This document shows positions 51,368-64,000 of a stretch of 64,000 nucleotides of DNA, piece by piece; position 1 is the stretch's first letter, and every line of letters begins with the position of its first letter. A program made the position numbers and the translations under genes. Origin of the DNA: Siderastrea radians (Eukaryota; Cnidaria; Anthozoa; Scleractinia; Rhizangiidae); the NCBI GenBank assembly GCA_964017195.1, contig OZ024890.1, positions 22,443,201-22,507,200 of the forward strand, given 5' to 3'. Under the pieces are notes generated by a model. It saw only the letters and a program-made list of their open reading frames with translations, did not search any database and was not told the origin of the DNA.

Positions 51368-54300
51368 TTAATACATTTTTATAATTTCATGTTTGATATT
51401 GTTCTTTATTATGTTCTTCTTGATTCCCTTGGCTGTTTTCCCTACTTTCTTGTTGTCTTTTATGTAGCTATACATTTTTGATCGCAAACCGACGAATTCT
51501 GTTATTGGAATTCCAGCTGCTTCATCTTTGAATTTGCCAATTACCTTTTTATTTGTCTTATCGAAATACGGAGAGCTTTCTGGATAGTCGCTGTTGTCAA
51601 ATCGATCTTTGTCATTCCAAAAGTCTTGGTACACATCTTCAGCTTCAATCTCATATGTTAATGAGTCTGTGTCTGTGAATAATAATTTGGCTTTGTTACC
51701 ATACTTTTCTTTTATGTAGTTATAATGAAAATCATACATCAATGTCTTGCTCAGATCTAGAATACACATTCCTACATATGCCGGCCTGTTTAAAGTGAGC
51801 GTTTCCTTTATTTTATGTACAGCAACTAGATTTTCGTTGAATATCTTACTGCTTACATAAGTAGGTTTAGAAGCCATCTTCAATAGTTTCTTTTCATCAG
51901 TCACAAGTCTGACATCAACTCTCTTTCTTATGTTTTCCATAGTTTTACCAAATACTGAGTTATTCATAAGTTTGAAGAAATCTTTTTCGAATGAATTTTT
52001 CGCTTGAGTACGTTTCAGTGTATTGAATTGAATGTATTGTTTGAGCCAAGGTGACTGATTGAATTCTAACACTCGATGGACTTTATTCACTTTCAATCCA
52101 AGATCAAGATACAACTGCAGGTTTCTGTAATGCAGAACATATTTTTCTTTATTGCTTAATGTAGGGATCAGTTTGTGTACTAGTCCTGTCGATATATTGT
52201 ATTTTGTAGCTATTGTTTTACAATACTCAGACAGCATATCTTTATTAACACAAACTCTCTCGGCGGCTAATGGGTAGTCATTATGAAGGTCATGCAACTC
52301 TTTCGGGTATTCTAAATCGACTTCTATTAACAATCCTTTATTACTGTCTTCATTATACTGAGCTAAATTGATTTTATTAATCTGCTTTTCCGTCAACCAT
52401 TTGAAACCGCCAGTAGGGAGATATTGGCTCATAGCCCAACCGTATAAATTATTAGCATCAAGATACATAATGTACTTTGACGGCTCTTTCTCATCATATT
52501 CACTCATGTACTTGTTATTCGCTTTTCCATATCGATTGGCAATATAACTGATCCCACCACGCATGCCTTTTTCAATGAATTGAAACATATCTATGTCTGT
52601 CATTAGTTCCAATTGAATATTAGTCATCTTCATCATGGCGTCCCAACTCAAACCAGGGCTAGTGAAATAGTGGCATGGGTCTAATTTGTAATACTGAAGA
52701 CATGTTTTGCGAAAGTTTTCAAACACGTCGGCTAATAAAAGGATATCAGACTTAAGATATAAATTATGGTATTCACCCATTGTTTGTAATTGAAATGTAT
52801 TCCACACTTTCTGAGCATGACAATAATCTTCATCTGAAATATGCTCATTATTCATATTACTATAAAAGTCTTCTTTTGTTGGCAGTTTTTCATTGAATTT
52901 ATCGAAACTGTCCATGTAGTCGTAAGGGTATACTCCTTTTCTTGCCATCAGATCCAGCTTTTTACCTTTGAACTTTTTGGAGGTATATATTAGATTATCA
53001 TAATTTGGTGTTATACATGCTTTAACACTATTTTTACAATTTATACATTCACCACATGGGAAGCTTGTTTTATGTTGTATTATACGACCTTCACTATTGA
53101 TACTTCGTTTTATACACTTACCGGGGTTACACGTATCACATTTCCCACATTTCGTCATATTCTTAACGAGGTTTTCCAAACTAGAGCTCATGAATTGGAA
53201 ACTATCAATGAAGGTAAGATGATTACCAAGCATAAAAGCCATATACTTCTCCATATTGTTTGGAATTGCATTTATGTCCATTTTAATCTCTTTTTCGTTT
53301 TTGGTGTATGTATTATTCTTAACAATAGCTCCAATTTCTTGCATAATGAAATGACTGTCATAACCTCTCAAATTATGGAATATAACAGGAATTTTTATTT
53401 CTTTTGGATTTATTCTGAGTTTCAGATTACATTCTTGGTGAGCTGAGCCTCTGTATTGACCAGTAATATGACAATGATCTCTGACTCGAATGTCTTTCTC
53501 AGTGTATTTTTTATCGCATATATGACATTCTTTTGCTTTTTCAAATTCCTGTTCATTCTCTTTTGTCATTCTCAATGGTTTATTGAAATGTTTTTTCATT
53601 ACTTTTTTGCAGTATTTAACTTCTTCTAAAATATTTTCCATGAATTTATAAACAGCCTTTTCACCCCTATATATTTGTATTGGTTTTGTATATTTGTCGT
53701 CATAACAACAAACCACTTTATAACCATATCCACAGTCTGTATGCCTTTGGTAAGCTTCGGTGTATGATTTATTACCGTCTTGTTGACATCCATGAATCTT
53801 CTCTGTTATAGCCTCAAAATCAGCATAAATGACAAATGGCACAGGTTGCTGTTTATGGAAGTTGTTGAATTTCAGTATGTTATTGTCTTTGTCAGGCATT
53901 TTTATTGCTTGAGTACCGTTCACTTGAATGCAATTGTCTTTATGATTATTTAATACCCTGTCGGAACTGAAACATTGCAGGCAGTGCATACAAAAGTGTT
54001 TCCTATGTTCGTGTTTTGTTTGGTTATACATGAATTTGTTGAAATCCTTTATCAGAACATAATGCTTGTTTTCATTTTTAGTTACCAGAAGTAGTTCCAT
54101 ATGATCTTCATACTTTTCTTTGGAAACATAGATGGGATATGGCTCTTTGTTTTCGTATCCGAATACGCTTATATTGATACTGTTTTGCTTCTCAATTTTG
54201 TTATAATGTTTGACACTTACTGGAAAATCAATGTTTGAATAATCTAACTTTTCAACGTATTGTTTGTCTGTCTTTTTTATTCTTTGAGGATATTTCTCTT

Positions 54301-55141
54301 GTGGGTTTAAGTGCCGGATATGACACCATCTGAAACATTCATTATCTTCATTTTTCATGTTAATTAGTCCCTTAGCACTATTTCGCAGTTCAGAAGGCAG
54401 TTGGATATATGAGGATCCTTTCATGGGCTTGTATTTGACAATGTTGAGGTAATGGCTATCAACAGATTGGACTGTCCATCCTGAACCTTCTGATATCCAC
54501 TGGGAGATCTGGTTTAAGATATTTTGTTTAGACATTTGTAATGCTTCATTGATTTCTGTATAGTTAATAATTGTTTGAGGTTTACTATTGAAATATGCTG
54601 ACTTTTCAACTATTTCACCATCAGAAATTTTGCTAAATGTGACTTTCAATGTTTCAACGTATTTCAAGCCTTTCATTTCATTCAACAAAGTTATTACACG
54701 ATGTTCTATAGCGTTTCTTGTGTTTTGCATTTGGGTTAAGGGGTCTTTATTGTTTTTGATGCTGATTTCATAAGACTTAGTGTAACCTTTTAAGGCTTTG
54801 TCTGTTTGTTCTATTTTGGTTCTTGGTGTTGGAACCGGTTTTTTAACTGCATGTTGTTTAGTTCTTGGTGCTGGAACTGGTTTATAATTATCTCTGAATT
54901 CTGGAGGTGGAAGAATGATGTTTTCTTCATATTCTTTAGCCATCTGTTTGACACTCTTGCGAGGTGTTGGTACAGGTGGTCTTGGTTTATAAGTCCTTTG
55001 TGTTGAAACTGGTTTGGTATCATCTGCTATGATGATTTCAGGCTTCCTTTTCTTTTGATTCAGAAGCAATTTGATAAGCTGTGATTTGCTGAGTTTCTTC
55101 AAACTAGCTTTGTTCATATTTATATGATTATATTTTTCCAT
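51368..55141 (-). CDS. Protein-primed DNA polymerase B (Polinton type)
   Basis: The frame is 1257 codons from the ATG at 55141, which follows a TATATATATATA run; a further 14 codons upstream are open but lack an ATG. In order: a Pro-rich N-terminus with three PVPxPR motifs (about 56-61, 88-93, 102-107), a C2H2-like finger (384-404), exonuclease motif I YADFEAI (D441, E443), an endonuclease-VII-like Cys/His cluster (539-571), exonuclease II NLRGYDSHF (about 590-598), a Cys cluster (665-709), exonuclease III YLKSDILLLAD (about 795-805), palm motif A DANNLYGW (D895), motif B KLMNNSVFGKT (about 1057-1067) and motif C DTDS (1157-1160). All catalytic acidic residues are present, so it appears functional. 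The family copies linear DNA using a terminal protein primer. The usual length is 1000-1300 residues. Confidence 0.93.
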   Translation of the reverse strand: MEKYNHINMNKASLKKLSKSQLIKLLLNQKKRKPEIIIADDTKPVSTQRTYKPRPPVPTPRKSVKQMAKEYEENIILPPPEFRDNYKPVPAPRTKQHAVKKPVPTPRTKIEQTDKALKGYTKSYEISIKNNKDPLTQMQNTRNAIEHRVITLLNEMKGLKYVETLKVTFSKISDGEIVEKSAYFNSKPQTIINYTEINEALQMSKQNILNQISQWISEGSGWTVQSVDSHYLNIVKYKPMKGSSYIQLPSELRNSAKGLINMKNEDNECFRWCHIRHLNPQEKYPQRIKKTDKQYVEKLDYSNIDFPVSVKHYNKIEKQNSINISVFGYENKEPYPIYVSKEKYEDHMELLLVTKNENKHYVLIKDFNKFMYNQTKHEHRKHFCMHCLQCFSSDRVLNNHKDNCIQVNGTQAIKMPDKDNNILKFNNFHKQQPVPFVIYADFEAITEKIHGCQQDGNKSYTEAYQRHTDCGYGYKVVCCYDDKYTKPIQIYRGEKAVYKFMENILEEVKYCKKVMKKHFNKPLRMTKENEQEFEKAKECHICDKKYTEKDIRVRDHCHITGQYRGSAHQECNLKLRINPKEIKIPVIFHNLRGYDSHFIMQEIGAIVKNNTYTKNEKEIKMDINAIPNNMEKYMAFMLGNHLTFIDSFQFMSSSLENLVKNMTKCGKCDTCNPGKCIKRSINSEGRIIQHKTSFPCGECINCKNSVKACITPNYDNLIYTSKKFKGKKLDLMARKGVYPYDYMDSFDKFNEKLPTKEDFYSNMNNEHISDEDYCHAQKVWNTFQLQTMGEYHNLYLKSDILLLADVFENFRKTCLQYYKLDPCHYFTSPGLSWDAMMKMTNIQLELMTDIDMFQFIEKGMRGGISYIANRYGKANNKYMSEYDEKEPSKYIMYLDANNLYGWAMSQYLPTGGFKWLTEKQINKINLAQYNEDSNKGLLIEVDLEYPKELHDLHNDYPLAAERVCVNKDMLSEYCKTIATKYNISTGLVHKLIPTLSNKEKYVLHYRNLQLYLDLGLKVNKVHRVLEFNQSPWLKQYIQFNTLKRTQAKNSFEKDFFKLMNNSVFGKTMENIRKRVDVRLVTDEKKLLKMASKPTYVSSKIFNENLVAVHKIKETLTLNRPAYVGMCILDLSKTLMYDFHYNYIKEKYGNKAKLLFTDTDSLTYEIEAEDVYQDFWNDKDRFDNSDYPESSPYFDKTNKKVIGKFKDEAAGIPITEFVGLRSKMYSYIKDNKKVGKTAKGIKKNIIKNNIKHEIIKMY

Positions 55142-55259
55142 TCTATATATATATACTATAGATATTCTTTTAAGTGTTTTCAATTAGTCCGTTTAAATAT
55201 TGCCAATAATTCAAATGATCCAAAACATAGGATCCCTTGAACTATATGAAAAAAGATTA

Positions 55260-55521: not shown

Positions 55522-56331
55522 TTATTTTCTCTTTATATGTATGTAATTCGAATGATTCTTTAATGTTTCTGTTGACTTGAATTTTCTGGAACAATGATTG
55601 CATTTTATCCTAACTCCATCAAAATAATGGATAATTTCTTTTATAATCTCATCATAATCATTACTAACCAACACTTTGAAATTGTTATTTCCACATTCTT
55701 GTAACATTATTTGTTGTTCATCTGATAATTTTCCATTTCCAGATGGAGATTTAAATTCAATCGCGAAACCTGAATACCTCATATGTAAATTCTGTATGAT
55801 TAGATCAGGAGATCCTTTTTGATAACCCATATTATAAGATCTTAATCTCATATTACTATTTATTTGGTTTTCACCTAATGTTGCATTTAAAAGTGCTTTT
55901 GGATAATTGTTTCTTATAAAGTTAACCACTTTTTTATGTAAGTCATACTCTGACTGTATATTAAAAGTTAACATTTTAAAGGGTTTGTGGTTATATTCAT
56001 ACCGTCCATTTTTTCTGATTGATGGTAAAACATCTTTTGTGACCCATCGTTTGAATTCCTTTGCTTTATCCATATCAGATCTCAAAATGAGGCTATACAG
56101 TCCGGATTCATTTATATAAATCACATGGTTATTTTTTAGGGGGAACGATTCGTTCCCCCAAGATTTGAGGTCGTTTAATGTAATTTTATCTTCCAAATCA
56201 ACATGATCACGAATAGCTTTACGAGTATTTGTATACTTTAAGATGTTAGCAACAATCTTAGCACGAAACCAAATATCATCATCCTTTTTGATAATATTCA
56301 GTTTTTTTCCTTCATAAATGAAATTTTCCAT
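55522..56331 (-). CDS. BRO-N / VRR-NUC / C2H2 fusion protein (269 aa)
   Basis: Residues 1-112 resemble BRO-N, a DNA-binding domain common in insect viruses and phages (WFRAKIVANILKYTN, ESGLYSLILRSDMDKAKEFKRWVTKDVLPSIRKNG). Residues about 130-235 carry the PD-(D/E)xK nuclease pattern of VRR-NUC: SPDLII (D176), FAIEFKSPSG (E192, K194) and a conserved Gln in DEQQ (206). Residues 244-265 are a C2H2 finger (CNHCSRKF...H...H). The expected activity is DNA cleavage, perhaps Holliday-junction or repair type, but this is inferred. BRO-N with various nuclease partners is known in large DNA viruses; within a Polinton I consider it accessory. The ATG at 56331 follows an AT-rich TATA-like stretch. Confidence 0.78.
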   Translation of the reverse strand: MENFIYEGKKLNIIKKDDDIWFRAKIVANILKYTNTRKAIRDHVDLEDKITLNDLKSWGNESFPLKNNHVIYINESGLYSLILRSDMDKAKEFKRWVTKDVLPSIRKNGRYEYNHKPFKMLTFNIQSEYDLHKKVVNFIRNNYPKALLNATLGENQINSNMRLRSYNMGYQKGSPDLIIQNLHMRYSGFAIEFKSPSGNGKLSDEQQIMLQECGNNNFKVLVSNDYDEIIKEIIHYFDGVRIKCNHCSRKFKSTETLKNHSNYIHIKRK

Positions 56332-56464: not shown

Positions 56465-57505
56465 TTATATATCCTTCAAGTCCTTGAACGGTATCCAACT
56501 GTTAAATTCATCACTATACCCCTTCCACTTCACCAAAGCTTGCTTCTTTTTATAATCTCTCCGAATGACTTTATCAATTCTGAATACCTCTTGTTTTGCT
56601 TTTAATAATTCAGGTTCATAGAAACTCCCTTGAATGTCTTCATCTCTGAGATCCTTTAGTTTGTATGTGATTGGATTTGTATGTTGTATTTCATTAACTG
56701 TGAAAATTTCCTCAGACCAATTTGGGGTATATCCTTTATCAAACACATTCCGTTTGTACTTGCTTATCCTAACCTTATCACCAACTTTGAACTTTGGTTT
56801 TTGTCTTGATGTTTCCATATCACCATACAGATTAAAGTAGACAGTTCCTTCATTCTTCTTTTTGCTTGCTTCTGCAGGTGTCATCTTTATGCTGGAATGT
56901 CTGGTATTGTTATACTGTTTCACTAATTTAGGTAACATGTCAAGATACTGTGTATTACCTTGAACAGTAAACTGTTTCCACATTTTGGTTTTGATTGTTC
57001 TGTTCCATCTTTCACAAACGGACGACTTTTCCTCATTTTCGGTTGAGTACAATGTTATTTTATTCTTATCAAGTAGTTCCTTAACATGTTTGTTGTAATA
57101 CTCTTTGCCTTTGTCTGTCCAAAGATATTGTGGTTTACGCCCCTCTTTGAATATTGTTTTGAAAGCATTCATAACGGTTTCACCCTTTTTATCTTTTAAT
57201 GGGACGATCCAACCGTATTTAGAGAATACATCTAAAACCATAAGAAGATATCTGTAGCCAGCGTTCCATCGACTGAATTTTTGCATCTCAACGATATCTG
57301 AACGCCATGTCTCGTCAATATGGTTTACAATTACCCGCCGCCGGGTGAAGTTACGCTTTATCGGTTTATGTAATTCATCAGCTAATTTTTCTTGCCAGTT
57401 TTCTTCACTCGACGGCCTTTCCCGTTTTTTGTCTTCCTTTGTTTTGTTACACCAAGACCTAGTTTCTGCTTTGTGTTGATTAGAAATCGTGCTGTTTGCC
57501 CCCAT
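56465..57505 (-). CDS. Integrase (rve/DDE) with C-terminal chromodomain
   Basis: The frame is 346 codons from an ATG at 57505. The RNase-H-fold core has D70 (SDIVEM), D131 (WTDKGKEY) and E165 (VCERWNRT). An SH3-like segment (KFKVGDKVRISKYK) follows at about 238-251, and a chromodomain at about 306-346 (IDKVIRR, ALVKWKGYSDEFNSWIP). The enzyme inserts the linear element into chromatin, making 6-bp duplications in this family. The first ~30 residues overlap the PLA2-like gene in another frame and look unlike conserved integrase sequence. The HHCC zinc domain is absent from this frame. The slippery heptamer at 57424-57430 would connect the PLA2 frame to this one by -1 shift, so translation may start upstream and not at 57505. 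Confidence 0.9.
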   Translation of the reverse strand: MGANSTISNQHKAETRSWCNKTKEDKKRERPSSEENWQEKLADELHKPIKRNFTRRRVIVNHIDETWRSDIVEMQKFSRWNAGYRYLLMVLDVFSKYGWIVPLKDKKGETVMNAFKTIFKEGRKPQYLWTDKGKEYYNKHVKELLDKNKITLYSTENEEKSSVCERWNRTIKTKMWKQFTVQGNTQYLDMLPKLVKQYNNTRHSSIKMTPAEASKKKNEGTVYFNLYGDMETSRQKPKFKVGDKVRISKYKRNVFDKGYTPNWSEEIFTVNEIQHTNPITYKLKDLRDEDIQGSFYEPELLKAKQEVFRIDKVIRRDYKKKQALVKWKGYSDEFNSWIPFKDLKDI

Positions 57506-58080
57506 TTTGGCATCTGTCCATAAGGTATTTCATGCAATGACTTGACCATTTGTTTGTCACATTCAACCTTGTTTTTCCCCATGTCATAACAAATATCATG
57601 ATGAGCTGCTATTTCATCGACCTTGTTGAGAGGTTTTACATTCCATTTGGTTACCTTGCCAGTATTTTTATCGTACTGAAGCTGCTCTTCCAGCGGATTA
57701 TACGGACCTAAATATTTATACTTACCTGGAGTGAATCCAGCTTTTGGTCTTGGTAATTTACCAATCAGTTTATGTATATCAACACCAGCGCCATCAAGAT
57801 CCTTTCTGTCGGTTTTATACTTTCTATTTGGTCTGATTTTAGTAGATAATTGATGAAGAGCTTGACTTCCGACATTTTGAATCATTGGATTCAACTTATC
57901 CAGAGCATAATCGATAGCCTTTTTCTGCAGTTTTGGGTTTCTCAAGGCTTCTGATCCATAATATCTCCCCATTTCAACAGCCTTTTTTCCCAGCCAAGGA
58001 ATACCGTGGTGAATCAATAAATCAGTACCAGTCGATGCTACTGTATCTAGTAAGCCCGCCCCTTTCGACGGGCTGACCCG
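57382..58080 (-). CDS. Phospholipase A2-like protein (parvovirus VP1-type fold), no own upstream ATG
   Basis: The frame is open from 58104 to the TAG at 57382-57384. The PLA2 signature is YLGPYNP (calcium loop), then HHDICYD (catalytic His-Asp) and a downstream Asp in ECDKQM, as in virion-borne PLA2 domains of parvoviruses, which help breach endosomal membranes. The first ATG lies well inside the conserved N-terminal linker (VEMGRYYG). Before it the frame overlaps the zinc-ribbon ORF at 58047-58235, with a slippery heptamer at the overlap. Expression as a -1 frameshift extension of that ORF is therefore likely. The C-terminus is very basic (KNGKGRRVKKTGKK). Confidence 0.8.
   Translation of the reverse strand, partial: RVSPSKGAGLLDTVASTGTDLLIHHGIPWLGKKAVEMGRYYGSEALRNPKLQKKAIDYALDKLNPMIQNVGSQALHQLSTKIRPNRKYKTDRKDLDGAGVDIHKLIGKLPRPKAGFTPGKYKYLGPYNPLEEQLQYDKNTGKVTKWNVKPLNKVDEIAAHHDICYDMGKNKVECDKQMVKSLHEIPYGQMPKWGQTARFLINTKQKLGLGVTKQRKTKNGKGRRVKKTGKKN
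57424..57430 (-). promoter_or_regulatory. Candidate -1 frameshift site A AAA AAC between PLA2 and integrase
   Basis: In the PLA2 frame the codons read ACA AAA AAC GGG, so A_AAA_AAC is in the canonical phase (X_XXY_YYZ). A -1 shift leads directly into the integrase frame. The PLA2 frame ends 42 bases downstream of it. I see no strong hairpin 5-9 bases downstream; a short ACCCG/CGGGT hairpin lies about 80 bases away. Confidence 0.6.
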
Positions 58081-58235
58081 TTTCCCTGGTTTTGTTTCAC
58101 AAATTTAGTTTTGGTGATTCCACATTGAGAGCATTTACATTTAAGCATAAGCCTCCCATTTTTAGCCTTTTCATATCGTTCACTCCCAGGTACACATTCT
58201 GTTACCTTTTTCTGTTTCACGCAATATGATCTCAT
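58047..58235 (-). CDS. Zinc-ribbon-like small protein (62 aa), upstream partner of PLA2
   Basis: The N-terminal ~45 residues carry SYCVKQKKVTECVPG and then CKCSQCGITKTKFV, a Cys pattern like the DUF5679-type zinc ribbons of large DNA viruses. The same domain, about 80% alike, starts the gene at 58648. The short tail ends at TAG (58047-58049). The slippery site at 58086-58080 lies in the tail, so the unshifted product is a free zinc-ribbon protein and the shifted product carries the PLA2 domain. The ATG at 58235 follows a TCTAA...ATATAT upstream motif. Confidence 0.75.
   Translation of the reverse strand: MRSYCVKQKKVTECVPGSERYEKAKNGRLMLKCKCSQCGITKTKFVKQNQGNGSARRKGRAY
58053..58086 (-). promoter_or_regulatory. 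Candidate -1 frameshift signal: G GGA AAC plus GC-rich hairpin
   Basis: In the 62-codon ORF the codons read CAG GGA AAC, so G_GGA_AAC (58086-58080) is in canonical phase. A -1 shift enters the PLA2 frame. After a 5-base spacer, AGCCCG (58074-58069) can pair with CGGGCT (58058-58053) around a 10-base loop. This GC-rich stem stands out in AT-rich surroundings. The arrangement matches known retroviral frameshift signals. Confidence 0.7.
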
Positions 58236-58246
58236 ATATAATATGA

Positions 58247-58648
58247 TTAGATTAGATTATATACGTTCTCATATTTACCAGTTTTTGGATTTTTCACCAA
58301 ACGCATGACAGTACCCTTCTTTGGTTTAGTCCAGAATTTCTTGCTTGTTATACCAGTTTGTCCTGTGAAAGCACCTTTCAATATATCACCAGACCAATAT
58401 CTGTCAAATACATGGTTGGCTGATGGAATTACTTTGCGAGTTATTTGTTCGGCTATTTTGGCTGCCTCGAAAGCTTTACCTAATGGATTTTCACCTCCCT
58501 TTTGGCTTTTGACGAATTTCGTCTTAGTAATACCACATTCACCACAAATACATTTCATCATAAGTCTGTTATTTTTGGCTCTCACATATCGTTCACTCCC
58601 AGGTACACATTCTGTGACCTTCTTTTGTTTCACGCAATAAGATTTCAT
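58247..58648 (-). CDS. Zinc-ribbon head protein with separate C-terminal domain (133 aa)
   Basis: Residues 1-47 repeat the zinc-ribbon domain of the 62-aa gene (SYCVKQKKVTECVPGSERY, CGECGITKTKFV). The rest (about 50-133) is a different basic domain with FDRYWSGDILKGAF and a Lys-rich end; I do not recognise it. The domain repetition suggests the zinc ribbon is a module that brings different cargo to the same place, possibly the virion, which is inference. The ATG at 58648 is preceded by ATATATAT. Confidence 0.7.
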   Translation of the reverse strand: MKSYCVKQKKVTECVPGSERYVRAKNNRLMMKCICGECGITKTKFVKSQKGGENPLGKAFEAAKIAEQITRKVIPSANHVFDRYWSGDILKGAFTGQTGITSKKFWTKPKKGTVMRLVKNPKTGKYENVYNLI

Positions 58649-58661
58649 ATATATAACTTGA

Positions 58662-59203
58662 TTACATATTTTTGAAATACTGTTCTAAGAATTTCTCATT
58701 CTTCGTCGTATCATATATATCAAATACCTGAAGCAGATCAAAATATGATTTACCCTTATTCATCTCATTCAAAAAGTACAAACAGAAGTAACCGCATGTT
58801 GTCGTCAGTAAATTTTGTATTTGATTGTTCTGATGAAGCAATGTTAAATTCTTTTTTCTCGCATGATTGACAATTTCTTGGAAGGGAGGCAAACCAAATG
58901 AATCAAAGTAATTGACGACGTTATCTTTCACATACGTGGATACCCAATGGCTACCGCTCATATATGATGGTTCAAGATTGTAAATGAATAGAGCCTGTCT
59001 ATGATCGTGAGGGACGTTTTCATCTCTTGACAATACATCATTAATTGGGATATTCAGATATTTACACCATTTTATTAAATCATAATTGCTTAATGGGACA
59101 TTCTTATGGAATTTCGGTTTTACAATAGAATGTTTAGAAGAGGGACGTTTTTGAATGGTGAGTTCTTGCCCAATAGTAGACCGTCGCCCTTTTTGGGAGC
59201 TTT
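58662..59203 (-). CDS. Adenain-like cysteine protease, no own ATG
   Basis: The frame is open from 59207 to the stop at 58662. It contains LSNYDLIKWCKYLNIP, then SGSHWVSTY (catalytic His), YFDSFG (Asp) and TTCGYFCLYFL (Cys), the order of the adenovirus-type maturation proteases of the C48/C5 group. No ATG occurs before SYMSGSHW, within the catalytic region, so independent initiation would remove essential sequence. The N-terminal part overlaps the 3' end of the 280-aa gene in the -1 frame, and a run of nine A lies where the frame opens. I infer synthesis as a frameshift extension of that upstream protein. The enzyme is expected to process capsid precursors. Confidence 0.82.
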
Positions 59204-59962
59204 TTTTTTAGTCCCCATACCGATTGTACCATTCGGCCAATTTCCATAAAAAGGTGGAGTTCTATACATTGGGACTAACAAACCACCATCTTGATTATTA
59301 TTGGTTAGTTGTGATATAGATCTGGGAGATCTTTGTTTCGGTTGACCCATCTGAGGGGCACCTTTACCAGTCATCTTCTTTATTGCCTCAATAGCTAAAG
59401 GGACTCCAATTGATGCAAGAAGAGTACCTAAGAAACCACCTGTTTGTACTTTAGTCGGTTTTATATGAACACCAGAGCCTGTTTGTAGAGCATTTAATAT
59501 ATCCTTCTTTTGTTTGGTTGTCAAAAGATGTTTATATGCTATCAACTGATCGATTTTATTTTGTGGTATGAGAAACCCACCAGTTTGAACACCTTTTCCA
59601 GATATCTTCTTAACAATCTGAGATGCTCCTTCACTAGCTGCTCCAGCTAAAGCCGACAATCCAAGAGTCTTAGCAATCGTTGGAGCAAAAGTTCTTCCAA
59701 GTGTTAGAACTGTAGACAGAAGAGATCCACCTAATTGCTTTCGAATGTTTGTTTTAGAAAGTTTAATGTCCATTCCCTTTTTCAATTTTCTATTTTTTTC
59801 CAGTCGCTTAACTATATTCTGAGGTACATACAGAGTATCATTCCCAGATAGAGAGTCCTTCGTGAGCCTTAGAACTATTGTTTCTCTTTTATGATACGCG
59901 TTACTAAGATTCTTTTTCTGGTTTGGTGATAAACTGACTTTAATTTCGTATAGTTGTGTCAT
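59120..59962 (-). CDS. Conserved Polinton virion-type protein with Gly-Gly motifs (280 aa)
   Basis: The N-terminal 75 residues form a basic domain (YEIKVSLSPNQKKNL). Two hydrophobic/amphipathic stretches follow (about 79-115 and 176-193), each after a Gly-Gly (QLGGS, QTGGF); further GG sites are at 128 and 226. The C-terminus is conserved in form (KKGDGLLLGKNSPFKNVPLL). I recognise this as a protein carried by many animal Polintons, located next to the protease, and comparable in style to adenovirus minor core or membrane-active proteins. The GG sites do not fit the strict adenain consensus. The ATG at 59962 has the TCTAA...ATATAT upstream motif. Confidence 0.7.
   Translation of the reverse strand: MTQLYEIKVSLSPNQKKNLSNAYHKRETIVLRLTKDSLSGNDTLYVPQNIVKRLEKNRKLKKGMDIKLSKTNIRKQLGGSLLSTVLTLGRTFAPTIAKTLGLSALAGAASEGASQIVKKISGKGVQTGGFLIPQNKIDQLIAYKHLLTTKQKKDILNALQTGSGVHIKPTKVQTGGFLGTLLASIGVPLAIEAIKKMTGKGAPQMGQPKQRSPRSISQLTNNNQDGGLLVPMYRTPPFYGNWPNGTIGMGTKKKAPKKGDGLLLGKNSPFKNVPLLNILL
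59201..59209 (-). promoter_or_regulatory. Candidate -1 slippage site (A9) between the GG-rich virion protein and protease
   Basis: In the upstream frame the codons are ACT AAA AAA AAA GCT. A stop (TAA) in the protease frame lies directly at the start of this run, and the frame is open from there on. A_AAA_AAA allows -1 slippage of ribosomes; RNA polymerase slippage on A9 is also possible. The downstream CCC AAAAA GGG hairpin is weak. Confidence 0.5.
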
Positions 59963-63632: not shown

Positions 63633-64000
63633 ATGAAGATTCAAAATTACGACATTCAAGATGATGAAAATAACGATTTTGTTCAATTAAAGAGTTTCAT
63701 GCCAAACCGATGTTTCAGGATGCTTATTTGTGCTCCCTCTGGTGGTGGCAAGACTAACCTTTTGCTTGATATGATATATAGGCTTCTCTATTTTGATAAG
63801 ATATACCTTTATGCTCGCAATCTCCAACAAAGCAAATATAAGCATCTGTTGAAATCTCTTGAACCAATATCAAAATCAAAAGAGGTCGGTTATGACGTGA
63901 TAGAAGCAAGTAACGATGAAATCATCCCTCTGACAGATTTGTCTGATGAAAACCAAAAATTAATCATATTTGATGACTATTTGAATACAGGTAAGAAAAA
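63633..64000 (+). CDS. A32-type DNA-packaging ATPase (FtsK/HerA), 5' part
   Basis: The frame from the ATG at 63633 is open to the window edge (122 codons). It has a Walker A motif APSGGGKTNLL at about residues 34-44 and a Walker B motif KLIIFDDY at about 109-116, with the spacing of poxvirus A32-like ATPases found in Polintons and adintoviruses. This enzyme pumps the genome into capsids. It is the only + strand gene of the element in the window. Its start fits the element's upstream motif (TCTAAC...ATATCAT). The rest lies outside. Confidence 0.88.
   Translation, partial: MKIQNYDIQDDENNDFVQLKSFMPNRCFRMLICAPSGGGKTNLLLDMIYRLLYFDKIYLYARNLQQSKYKHLLKSLEPISKSKEVGYDVIEASNDEIIPLTDLSDENQKLIIFDDYLNTGKK

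What the first reader, a model, noticed from the sequence alone, without database searches (positions are those of the whole stretch)
56465..58235. Retrovirus-like serial -1 frameshifting predicted in a Polinton: zinc ribbon, PLA2, integrase
Three consecutive minus-strand frames each shift by -1 into the next. At the first overlap the zinc-ribbon frame reads CAG GGA AAC, placing G_GGA_AAC in canonical phase, with a GC-rich 6-bp hairpin 5 bases downstream. At the second, the PLA2 frame reads ACA AAA AAC, placing A_AAA_AAC in phase. Both heptamers are classic retroviral gag-pro types. The PLA2 frame has no ATG before its conserved linker. One mRNA could then yield zinc ribbon alone, zinc ribbon-PLA2 and, rarely, zinc ribbon-PLA2-integrase, which would load enzymes into particles in limited amounts. 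I know of no description of this in Polintons, but could not search.
Basis: partly seen in the sequence, partly recalled or inferred. Interest (0 to 1): 0.88.

Follow-up and report, generated by a model that had tools for sequence, protein, structure and literature searches.

The report
Two frameshift signals in coral-type Polinton
A virus-like DNA transposon in what is probably a stony coral's genome appears to make three proteins from one message by letting ribosomes slip back one base at two successive signals, a trick known from retroviruses and not described, in the papers searched, for these genes of such DNA elements.

Summary
Zinc-ribbon (ZnR), PLA2 and integrase (INT) frames lie in successive -1 registers, with G_GGA_AAC and A_AAA_AAC in phase. 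This is not a lesion of one copy: of 81 copies from the same genome (window included), 74 have the first -1 overlap (73 with GGGAAAC in phase) and 73 the second (70 with AAAAAAC); 8 further copies agree. All three frames evolve under purifying selection (pooled dN/dS 0.13-0.18), including stretches upstream of any AUG. Behind site 1 lies a GC-rich hairpin, mostly 7-8 bp and 5-6 nt away. Behind site 2 is an unreported 14-pair stem, 7 nt away, with 13 or 14 pairs formed in 78 of 80 copies. Canonical splicing has no usable sites of 40 nt or more at site 1 and looks implausible at site 2. Against a strict requirement: in-frame ZnR-PLA2 copies exist, and some relatives encode ZnR-PLA2-INT in one frame. 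A third junction (capsid-like protein to protease) slides over a variable poly-A tract. No product was seen; frameshifting remains inferred. The closest paper found predicts hypothetical -1 sites in other genes of related viruses.

The parts
58047..58235 (-). Zinc-ribbon (DUF5679-like) frame, 62 aa, upstream (zero) frame of site 1
   Evidence: Pfam DUF5679 E 1.6e-4, 22.2 bits, below the curated cut-off 27
58080..58086 (-). Slippery heptamer 1, G_GGA_AAC, in ZnR phase
   Evidence: in phase in 73 of the 74 overlapping copies
58053..58074 (-). Hairpin 5 nt downstream of heptamer 1, 8 bp, GC-rich
   Evidence: (z -4.5 on 40 nt of the window)
57382..58104 (-). PLA2 frame (240 aa stop to stop), -1 of the ZnR frame; first ATG 57972
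   Evidence: Pfam Phospholip_A2_4 E 1.1e-6
57424..57430 (-). Slippery heptamer 2, A_AAA_AAC, in PLA2 phase
   Evidence: in phase in 70 of the 73 overlapping copies
57403..57416 (-). 5' arm of the long stem downstream of heptamer 2 (7-nt spacer 57423-57417)
   Evidence: identical in 79 of 80 copies
57337..57350 (-). 3' arm of the same stem, 52 nt after the 5' arm; the PLA2 stop codon lies in the loop
   Evidence: 13 or 14 of 14 pairs in 78 of 80 copies
56465..57529 (-). Retrovirus-type integrase with chromodomain (354 aa stop to stop), -1 of the PLA2 frame
   Evidence: Pfam rve 5.7e-11, Chromo 3e-7; profile of ten relatives matches PFV and other integrase chains
58247..58648 (-). Upstream paralogue of the zinc ribbon, 133 aa, with a different C-terminal part
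   Evidence: in four example copies the ZnR query matches twice, 78% identity in the upstream one
59120..59962 (-). 280-aa protein with Gly-Gly motifs, possible capsid-interior protein (inferred), upstream frame of a third junction
58662..59207 (-). Adenain-like protease frame (181 aa), -1 of the 280-aa frame in this copy; first ATG at 58961
   Evidence: Peptidase_C5 weak, E 0.0083 for the shorter ORF and 0.029 for the whole frame, both below the cut-off
59201..59209 (-). Run of nine A at the third junction

Best explanation
A Polinton family with many copies in an animal genome (probably a stony coral; inferred) expresses ZnR, PLA2 and integrase from one mRNA through two serial programmed -1 ribosomal frameshifts. 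Most ribosomes end at the ZnR stop. Some slip back at G_GGA_AAC, held by a GC-rich hairpin 5-6 nt ahead, and make ZnR-PLA2. A few of these slip again at A_AAA_AAC, held by a 14-pair stem 7 nt ahead, and make ZnR-PLA2-integrase. Shown: frames, heptamers, structures that fold in silico, their conservation within the genome, selection on all three frames and on parts lying upstream of any AUG. Inferred: one shared mRNA, that slippage occurs, its efficiency, and that the fusions place enzymes in the particle in graded amounts.
For: Both -1 overlaps with both in-phase heptamers in 63 of 81 copies; site 1 in 74 of 81 (73 with heptamer), site 2 in 73 of 81 (70 with heptamer); 8 of 8 later copies, PLA2 identity 86-89%, have both overlaps, both heptamers and 13-14 pairs of stem 2. 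dN/dS 0.18, 0.15, 0.13 for ZnR (75 copies), PLA2 (70), INT (68) at pS 0.43, 0.24, 0.35; PLA2 residues 20-44, in copies whose first ATG is at residue 44 or later, 0.084 (53 copies); INT residues 50-79 in copies whose first ATG is at residue 76 or later (plus the window) 0.08 (40). In the ZnR frame (56 copies) the lowest synonymous diversity is at heptamer and hairpin (0.07 for the lowest 7-codon window against a mean of 0.39). Site 1: z -4.5 on the 40 nt behind the window's heptamer; a different sequence forms a hairpin at the same place in L022, L062 and L111. Site 2: 14 pairs in 38, 13 in 40, 12 in 2 of 80 copies; sliding the 3' arm by 1-4 nt leaves 3.9-7.5 on average against 13.45; third bases of the two Arg codons in the stem are G 67/A 13 and G 80, all pair-keeping, while the next Arg codon, outside, is G 41/T 36/A 3. 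Of the 120 ZnR relatives listed (of 275 found), 111 carry Gly-Asn, as GGA AAC would give, near a C-terminus whose preceding residues vary. Of 92 listed proteins with a readable PLA2 N-terminus, 10 are ZnR-PLA2 in frame, 34 start later or otherwise, and 48 read as the ZnR codons in the -1 frame: 42 with GK[R/L/W], 5 with KKL, 1 with RKL. Of 16 integrase relatives with an N-terminus that I read as the -1 reading of the PLA2 end, 10 have KK[R/L] (my count).
Against: No RNA, protein or reporter data. Copies in one ZnR-PLA2 frame exist: 4 of 81, 4 of 150 by frame length (plus one 547-aa frame), and 13 stop-free long frames among 142 places scored with an in-frame query, which favours them; at least two share the same form at distant loci (L019, L042), so the in-frame state has been copied and is not lethal, at least with help in trans. 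Some relatives have ZnR-PLA2-INT in one frame (P0124, P0185, P0188, P0159). Copies are related and look mosaic, so counts are not independent. At site 2 the heptamer codons are no more conserved than half of the other Lys and Asn codons of PLA2 (19 of 36 and 5 of 10 are as low), and other PLA2 stretches are as invariant. Within the overlaps the downstream frame shows no purifying signal (dN/dS 1.4 for PLA2 at site 1, 2.0 for INT at site 2) while the upstream frame does (0.26 and 0.07). In 12 of 75 copies the site 1 fold has a stem under 6 contiguous bp. DNA of other species was not obtained; the wider evidence is protein sequence back-read. 31 of 81 copies, the window among them, have an ATG ahead of the conserved integrase part. 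Site 2 has GT..AG pairs that could join the frames in 73 of 73 copies.
Confidence: 0.84

Rival explanations
1. Inherited lesions: the frames were broken in an ancestor and copies simply inherit the breaks; the heptamers are passengers.
For: Copies are related, and zero-shift copies and relatives exist.
Against: Purifying selection on the downstream frames, including parts ahead of any AUG, with pS 0.24-0.43 for whole frames; fixed register and heptamers in the great majority; conserved structures with pair-keeping changes; -1 register also suggested for diverged relatives.
Confidence: 0.04
2. Small introns join the frames (perhaps in part of the transcripts).
For: GT..AG pairs of 40 nt or more that would join the frames exist at site 2 in 73 of 73 copies.
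Against: At site 1 none of 74 copies has such a pair of 40 nt or more that keeps the conserved residues, and only 10 of 74 one of 20 nt or more. At site 2 the window's four candidates have weak donors (my judgement) and only 4-5 pyrimidines in the 18 bases before the acceptor AG, and would remove the conserved PLA2 end.
Confidence: 0.04
3. Separate initiation: leaky scanning, reinitiation or an internal entry site starts PLA2 and integrase on their own.
For: In many relatives the PLA2 frame as predicted opens at an ATG within the ZnR codons; in 31 of 81 copies integrase has an ATG ahead of its conserved part.
Against: 59 of 81 copies have no PLA2 ATG before residue 44 and 47 of 81 no integrase ATG before residue 76, yet the residues ahead of these are conserved. 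The ATG in relatives overlaps what I read as a zinc-ribbon Cys codon. It does not explain heptamers and stems.
Confidence: 0.05
4. Polymerase slippage on A runs gives mixed mRNAs (relevant to site 2 and to the third junction).
For: The third junction has long A runs whose copies fall into all three registers.
Against: The site 1 heptamer holds only three A. Site 2 has six A, the same length in all copies whose heptamer is in phase, followed by a conserved stem.
Confidence: 0.03

Closest known systems
Retroviral gag-pro(-pol) -1 frameshifting with two sites (MMTV and Mason-Pfizer type; recalled, not tested)
   Same: Two serial -1 sites, heptamers of the same types (G_GGA_AAC, A_AAA_AAC; recalled), a short zinc-binding product upstream and a retrovirus-type integrase last
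   Different: A DNA transposon/virus in which I saw no reverse transcriptase (not searched for by name); PLA2 takes the middle place; no homology between the upstream products was tested
Hypothetical -1 sites in adintovirus Penton and Hexon-Adenain genes (PMC11071296, section 16 read)
   Same: Related virus group; KnotInFrame-predicted -1 sites; [quoted passage not shown]
   Different: Other genes; no zinc ribbon, PLA2 or integrase junction is mentioned in that section; no conservation test is given there
Bacterial IS elements with -1 frameshifting ahead of the transposase domain (recalled; a PMC8310308 passage says recoding is widely used by IS elements)
   Same: Frameshifting meters the DDE-type recombinase of a DNA element
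   Different: Prokaryotic, one site, no PLA2 and no capsid genes (recalled)
Relatives with ZnR-PLA2-integrase in one frame (P0124, P0185; P0188 from Oculina patagonica)
   Same: Same three domains in the same order (the DUF5679 match of P0188 is partial and weak, E 0.0058)
   Different: No frameshift; a single continuous polyprotein

Membership tests
Programmed -1 ribosomal frameshift signal | Slippery X_XXY_YYZ in zero-frame phase inside the overlap of -1 frames | tested here: met
Programmed -1 ribosomal frameshift signal | Downstream RNA structure at about 5-9 nt | tested here: met
   Site 1: 5-7 nt in 74 of the 75 copies folded, though in 12 the fold has a shorter or rearranged stem (under 6 contiguous bp); site 2: 7 nt, 13-14 of 14 pairs in 78 of 80
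Programmed -1 ribosomal frameshift signal | Evolutionary conservation of site and register | tested here: met
   within one genome at DNA level, beyond it at protein level only; at site 2 heptamer conservation is not exceptional among Lys and Asn codons
Programmed -1 ribosomal frameshift signal | Trans-frame product demonstrated | not testable with these tools
   Needs reporter assay or mass spectrometry
Polinton/Maverick (Eupolintoviridae) | Retrovirus-type (RVE) integrase | tested here: met
Polinton/Maverick (Eupolintoviridae) | Protein-primed DNA polymerase B | tested here: inconclusive
   1271-aa ORF at 51368-55183; profile searches gave an endonuclease VII zinc finger and no polymerase family, no PDB polymerase; polymerase motifs seen by eye only (recalled)
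Polinton/Maverick (Eupolintoviridae) | A32/FtsK-type packaging ATPase | tested here: inconclusive
   63633-63998(+), cut by the window end; Pox_A32 E 7.8e-5, 22.7 bits against a cut-off of 22.8
Polinton/Maverick (Eupolintoviridae) | Adenain/Ulp1-type protease | tested here: inconclusive
   Peptidase_C5 E 0.0083, 16.3 bits, below the cut-off 21.3
[quoted passage not shown]
   The 429-aa ORF gave no Pfam, PHROG or PDB sequence match; no fold was predicted
Polinton/Maverick (Eupolintoviridae) | Long terminal inverted repeats and target duplication | not tested
   The ATPase frame runs off the window end, so the window appears to end inside the element

The most novel reading that the evidence does not exclude
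A whole lineage of animal Polintons uses serial, structure-stimulated -1 frameshifting (G_GGA_AAC plus hairpin, then A_AAA_AAC plus long-range stem) to make ZnR, ZnR-PLA2 and ZnR-PLA2-integrase in graded amounts, a DNA-virus counterpart of the retroviral Gag/Gag-Pro/Gag-Pro-Pol scheme, with a third, poly-A-based junction between a capsid-interior protein and the protease; relatives have repeatedly switched between frameshifted and one-frame forms.
Probability: 0.72. Interest if true: 0.87.

Novelty: new variant of a known kind. Interest (0 to 1): 0.82.

Why it matters
[quoted passage not shown] A conserved double site in a family with many copies would add a case with many natural variants, show how a DNA transposon could meter its integrase and a membrane-active enzyme, suggest that the integrase enters the particle as a fusion, and explain why gene prediction splits these genes. 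It is directly testable with short junction reporters.

Tried and rejected
Single-copy lesion or assembly error: rejected by 80 other copies. First suspicion from P0001 (in-frame ZnR-PLA2, 147 members) that the frame is normally continuous: rejected for this family, because most listed relatives with a readable N-terminus or ZnR tail fit the -1 register (48 against 10; 111 of 120). Local hairpin directly behind site 2: none significant on 40-80 nt; the stem appears in the 95-nt and 110-nt folds. DNA of relatives elsewhere: viral contigs and genome contigs gave no relative. Pooled dN/dS counts all pairs, so it is a summary and not a test. Site 2 heptamer conservation on its own is not exceptional.

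Left out of counts: L002-L008 repeat L009-L015 and were dropped for sites 1 and 2 (used for the third junction, with L001 and L069-L088: 28 examined, 27 with a protease match). L107 lacked the 5' arm of stem 2, so n = 80 there. Codon tables hold only copies with near-full-length frames (75, 70, 68 of 81). The script filed P0148 as separate although it reads as continuous, so 30 continuous PLA2-INT proteins should be 31. The site 1 folds (75) are the copies with GGGAAAC in phase, two zero-frame copies included.
Full report
What is there. On the minus strand a short zinc-ribbon frame (58235-58047), a PLA2 frame (58104-57382) and a retrovirus-type integrase frame with a chromodomain (57529-56465) follow each other, each in the -1 register of the one before. 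G_GGA_AAC lies in ZnR phase at 58086 and A_AAA_AAC in PLA2 phase at 57430. In-phase classic heptamers occur at 15 of 3498 codons of the element's other coding stretches, so 0.08 and 0.21 would be expected in overlaps of these lengths. The neighbourhood fits a Polinton: a long ORF taken as PolB (no profile match to a polymerase), an A32-like ATPase start, a weak adenovirus-protease match and a Bro-N/VRR-NUC protein.

It is a family trait. The window lies in an 805-Mb assembly of 439 contigs, C1 to C14 being 38-75 Mb long in the lengths seen; 150 PLA2 copies were scored from 2277 candidates. I examined the window plus 80 of them. Site 1 is a -1 overlap in 74 of 81 copies, 73 of these with GGGAAAC in phase; site 2 in 73 of 81, 70 of these with AAAAAAC; 63 of 81 have both with both heptamers. 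Exceptions at site 1: four copies with ZnR and PLA2 in one frame and three whose PLA2 frame is broken before the overlap. Exceptions at site 2: eight, six with shortened integrase frames, one with a shortened PLA2 frame (L020) and one a single PLA2-INT frame (L017) that has also lost heptamer 1. Site 2 overlaps without an in-phase heptamer are L011 (PLA2 stops early), L015 and L050 (heptamer altered). Eight further copies, mostly from the weaker end of the list (86-89% PLA2 identity), were fetched afterwards, and all eight show both overlaps, both heptamers and stem 2.

The frames are translated. Pooled dN/dS is 0.18 for ZnR (75 copies), 0.15 for PLA2 (70) and 0.13 for integrase (68), with pS 0.43, 0.24 and 0.35. 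PLA2 residues 20-44, in copies whose first ATG comes at residue 44 or later, give 0.084 (53 copies); integrase residues 50-79, in copies whose first ATG is at residue 76 or later (plus the window as reference), give 0.08 (40). So protein that lies ahead of any AUG is under selection and must be reached from upstream. In 59 of 81 copies PLA2 has no ATG before residue 44, and in 47 of 81 integrase has none before residue 76. Inside the overlaps it is the upstream frame that is constrained (0.26 for ZnR, 0.07 for PLA2) and not the downstream one (1.4 for PLA2, 2.0 for integrase) (51-56 copies).

RNA structures. Behind heptamer 1 a hairpin starts 5-6 nt away in 71 of the 75 copies folded; the 40 nt behind the window's heptamer fold with z -4.5. 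In 12 of the 75 the minimum-energy fold has a rearranged or shorter contiguous stem, mostly of one sequence type. Three copies (L022, L062, L111) carry a different sequence at this place that again forms a hairpin, with the ZnR stop directly after the heptamer; L036, whose PLA2 frame is broken, has the L022 sequence as well (not folded). Behind heptamer 2 nothing significant folds within 80 nt, but 7 nt away a 14-nt arm (57416-57403) pairs with 57350-57337. Of 80 copies 38 form 14 pairs, 40 form 13 and 2 form 12; sliding the 3' arm by up to 4 nt leaves 3.9-7.5 against 13.45. The z-score of the window's 110-nt fold as a whole is only -1.2. The 5' arm is identical in 79 of 80. The 3' arm, read by the integrase frame alone, varies in 12 forms: third bases stay pair-compatible in the two Arg codons within the stem (G 67/A 13; G 80) and vary in the next Arg codon outside it (G 41/T 36/A 3). 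The commonest changes are transitions, which keep pairs easily, so this is good but not overwhelming support.

Beyond this genome. Among the 120 best of 275 ZnR relatives, 111 carry Gly-Asn near a C-terminus whose preceding residues vary; 14 end directly on it or one residue later. Of 92 listed proteins with a readable PLA2 N-terminus, 10 are ZnR-PLA2 in frame, 34 start later or otherwise, and 48 read as the ZnR codons in the -1 register: 42 with GK[R/L/W], 5 with KKL, 1 with RKL (the script picks by this motif, and my reading of the list gave the same 48), as XXX_YYY_Z in the -1 frame would give for G_GGA_AAC, G_GGA_AAU or A_AAA_AAC. This is back-reading, so consistent with, not proof of. By my count, 16 integrase relatives carry an N-terminus that I read as the -1 reading of the PLA2 end: 10 with KK[R/L], two (P0165, P0169) with FKL, four with neither. 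Other relatives are continuous: 31 PLA2-INT (30 as filed by the script, and P0148), and ZnR-PLA2-INT in P0124, P0185, P0159 and P0188. P0188 is named as from Oculina patagonica, which I recall as a stony coral; the host of the window was not identified. Some of the unnamed proteins may come from the window's own species, and how many species they stand for is unknown; the best match of P0043 in this genome is 64%, so that one is probably from elsewhere.

Rivals. Canonical splicing cannot join the frames at site 1 with an intron of 40 nt or more in any of 74 copies without losing conserved residues; at site 2 possible GT..AG pairs exist in 73 of 73, but the window's candidates have purine-rich acceptors and would remove conserved PLA2 residues. 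Separate initiation does not explain selection ahead of the first AUG, nor the heptamers and stems. Inherited lesions do not explain selection downstream. The in-frame copies (4 of 81; 13 stop-free places among 142 scored with an in-frame query) show that a one-frame product is tolerated.

A third junction. The 280-aa protein (59962-59120) and the protease frame (open from 59207) overlap in the -1 register here, at a run of nine A. Of 28 copies examined (the window and three near-identical ones among them) 17 are -1, 6 are 0, 4 are +1 and one had no protease match; the A tract varies in length. The protease frame has its first ATG only inside the domain in this copy. This looks like a homopolymer junction in which register is not fixed, unlike sites 1 and 2.

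What is known. Seven searches with frameshift terms (the last found no paper) and one with Polinton, cnidarian and PLA2 terms listed no title or abstract start that describes these junctions; apart from the five papers named next I saw listings only. The closest is PMC11071296 (passages and section 16 read), which predicts hypothetical -1 sites in some adintovirus Penton genes and notes a similar relationship for a potential Hexon-Adenain fusion. PMC8310308 (passages; [quoted passage not shown] In PMC4028283 and PMC11071308 (term search and passages) the words frameshift and phospholipase do not occur. PMC12567637 (passages) reports no such case in Polintons in the passages seen. Starrett 2021 was not held. 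The library holds open-licence papers only. The retroviral attribution of the heptamers is recalled.

Verdict. Slippage itself, its efficiency and the purpose remain inferred.

Noticed in passing
window 59201-59209, frames 59120-59962 and 58662-59207 (-); L001-L008, L069-L088: A capsid-interior-like protein and the adenain-like protease overlap in the -1 register at a poly-A run; across 28 copies the register is -1 in 17, 0 in 6, +1 in 4 and one had no protease match, with variable A-run length. L006, L080, L083 and L084 carry a diverged version (protease identity 35-41%).
   Followed up: partly
window 58247-58648 and 58047-58235 (-): Tandem zinc ribbons: the upstream paralogue has its own C-terminal part. 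P0001 looks like the upstream ribbon fused in frame to PLA2.
   Followed up: partly
G000: Thousands of first-look candidate PLA2 places (2277 and 2949) in one 805-Mb animal genome, many of the scored ones with open frames: a large, diverse and mosaic Polinton population.
   Followed up: partly
P0003, P0006: Public proteins in which the 280-aa protein or the start of the 429-aa protein runs into PLA2, suggesting internally deleted or recombined copies.
   Followed up: no
window 55522-56331 (-): Bro-N domain fused to a VRR-NUC nuclease domain with a weak C2H2-like end, next to the integrase.
   Followed up: no
window 51368-55183 (-): The 1271-aa ORF taken as PolB matches an endonuclease VII-type zinc finger and no polymerase family in profile searches.
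   Followed up: partly
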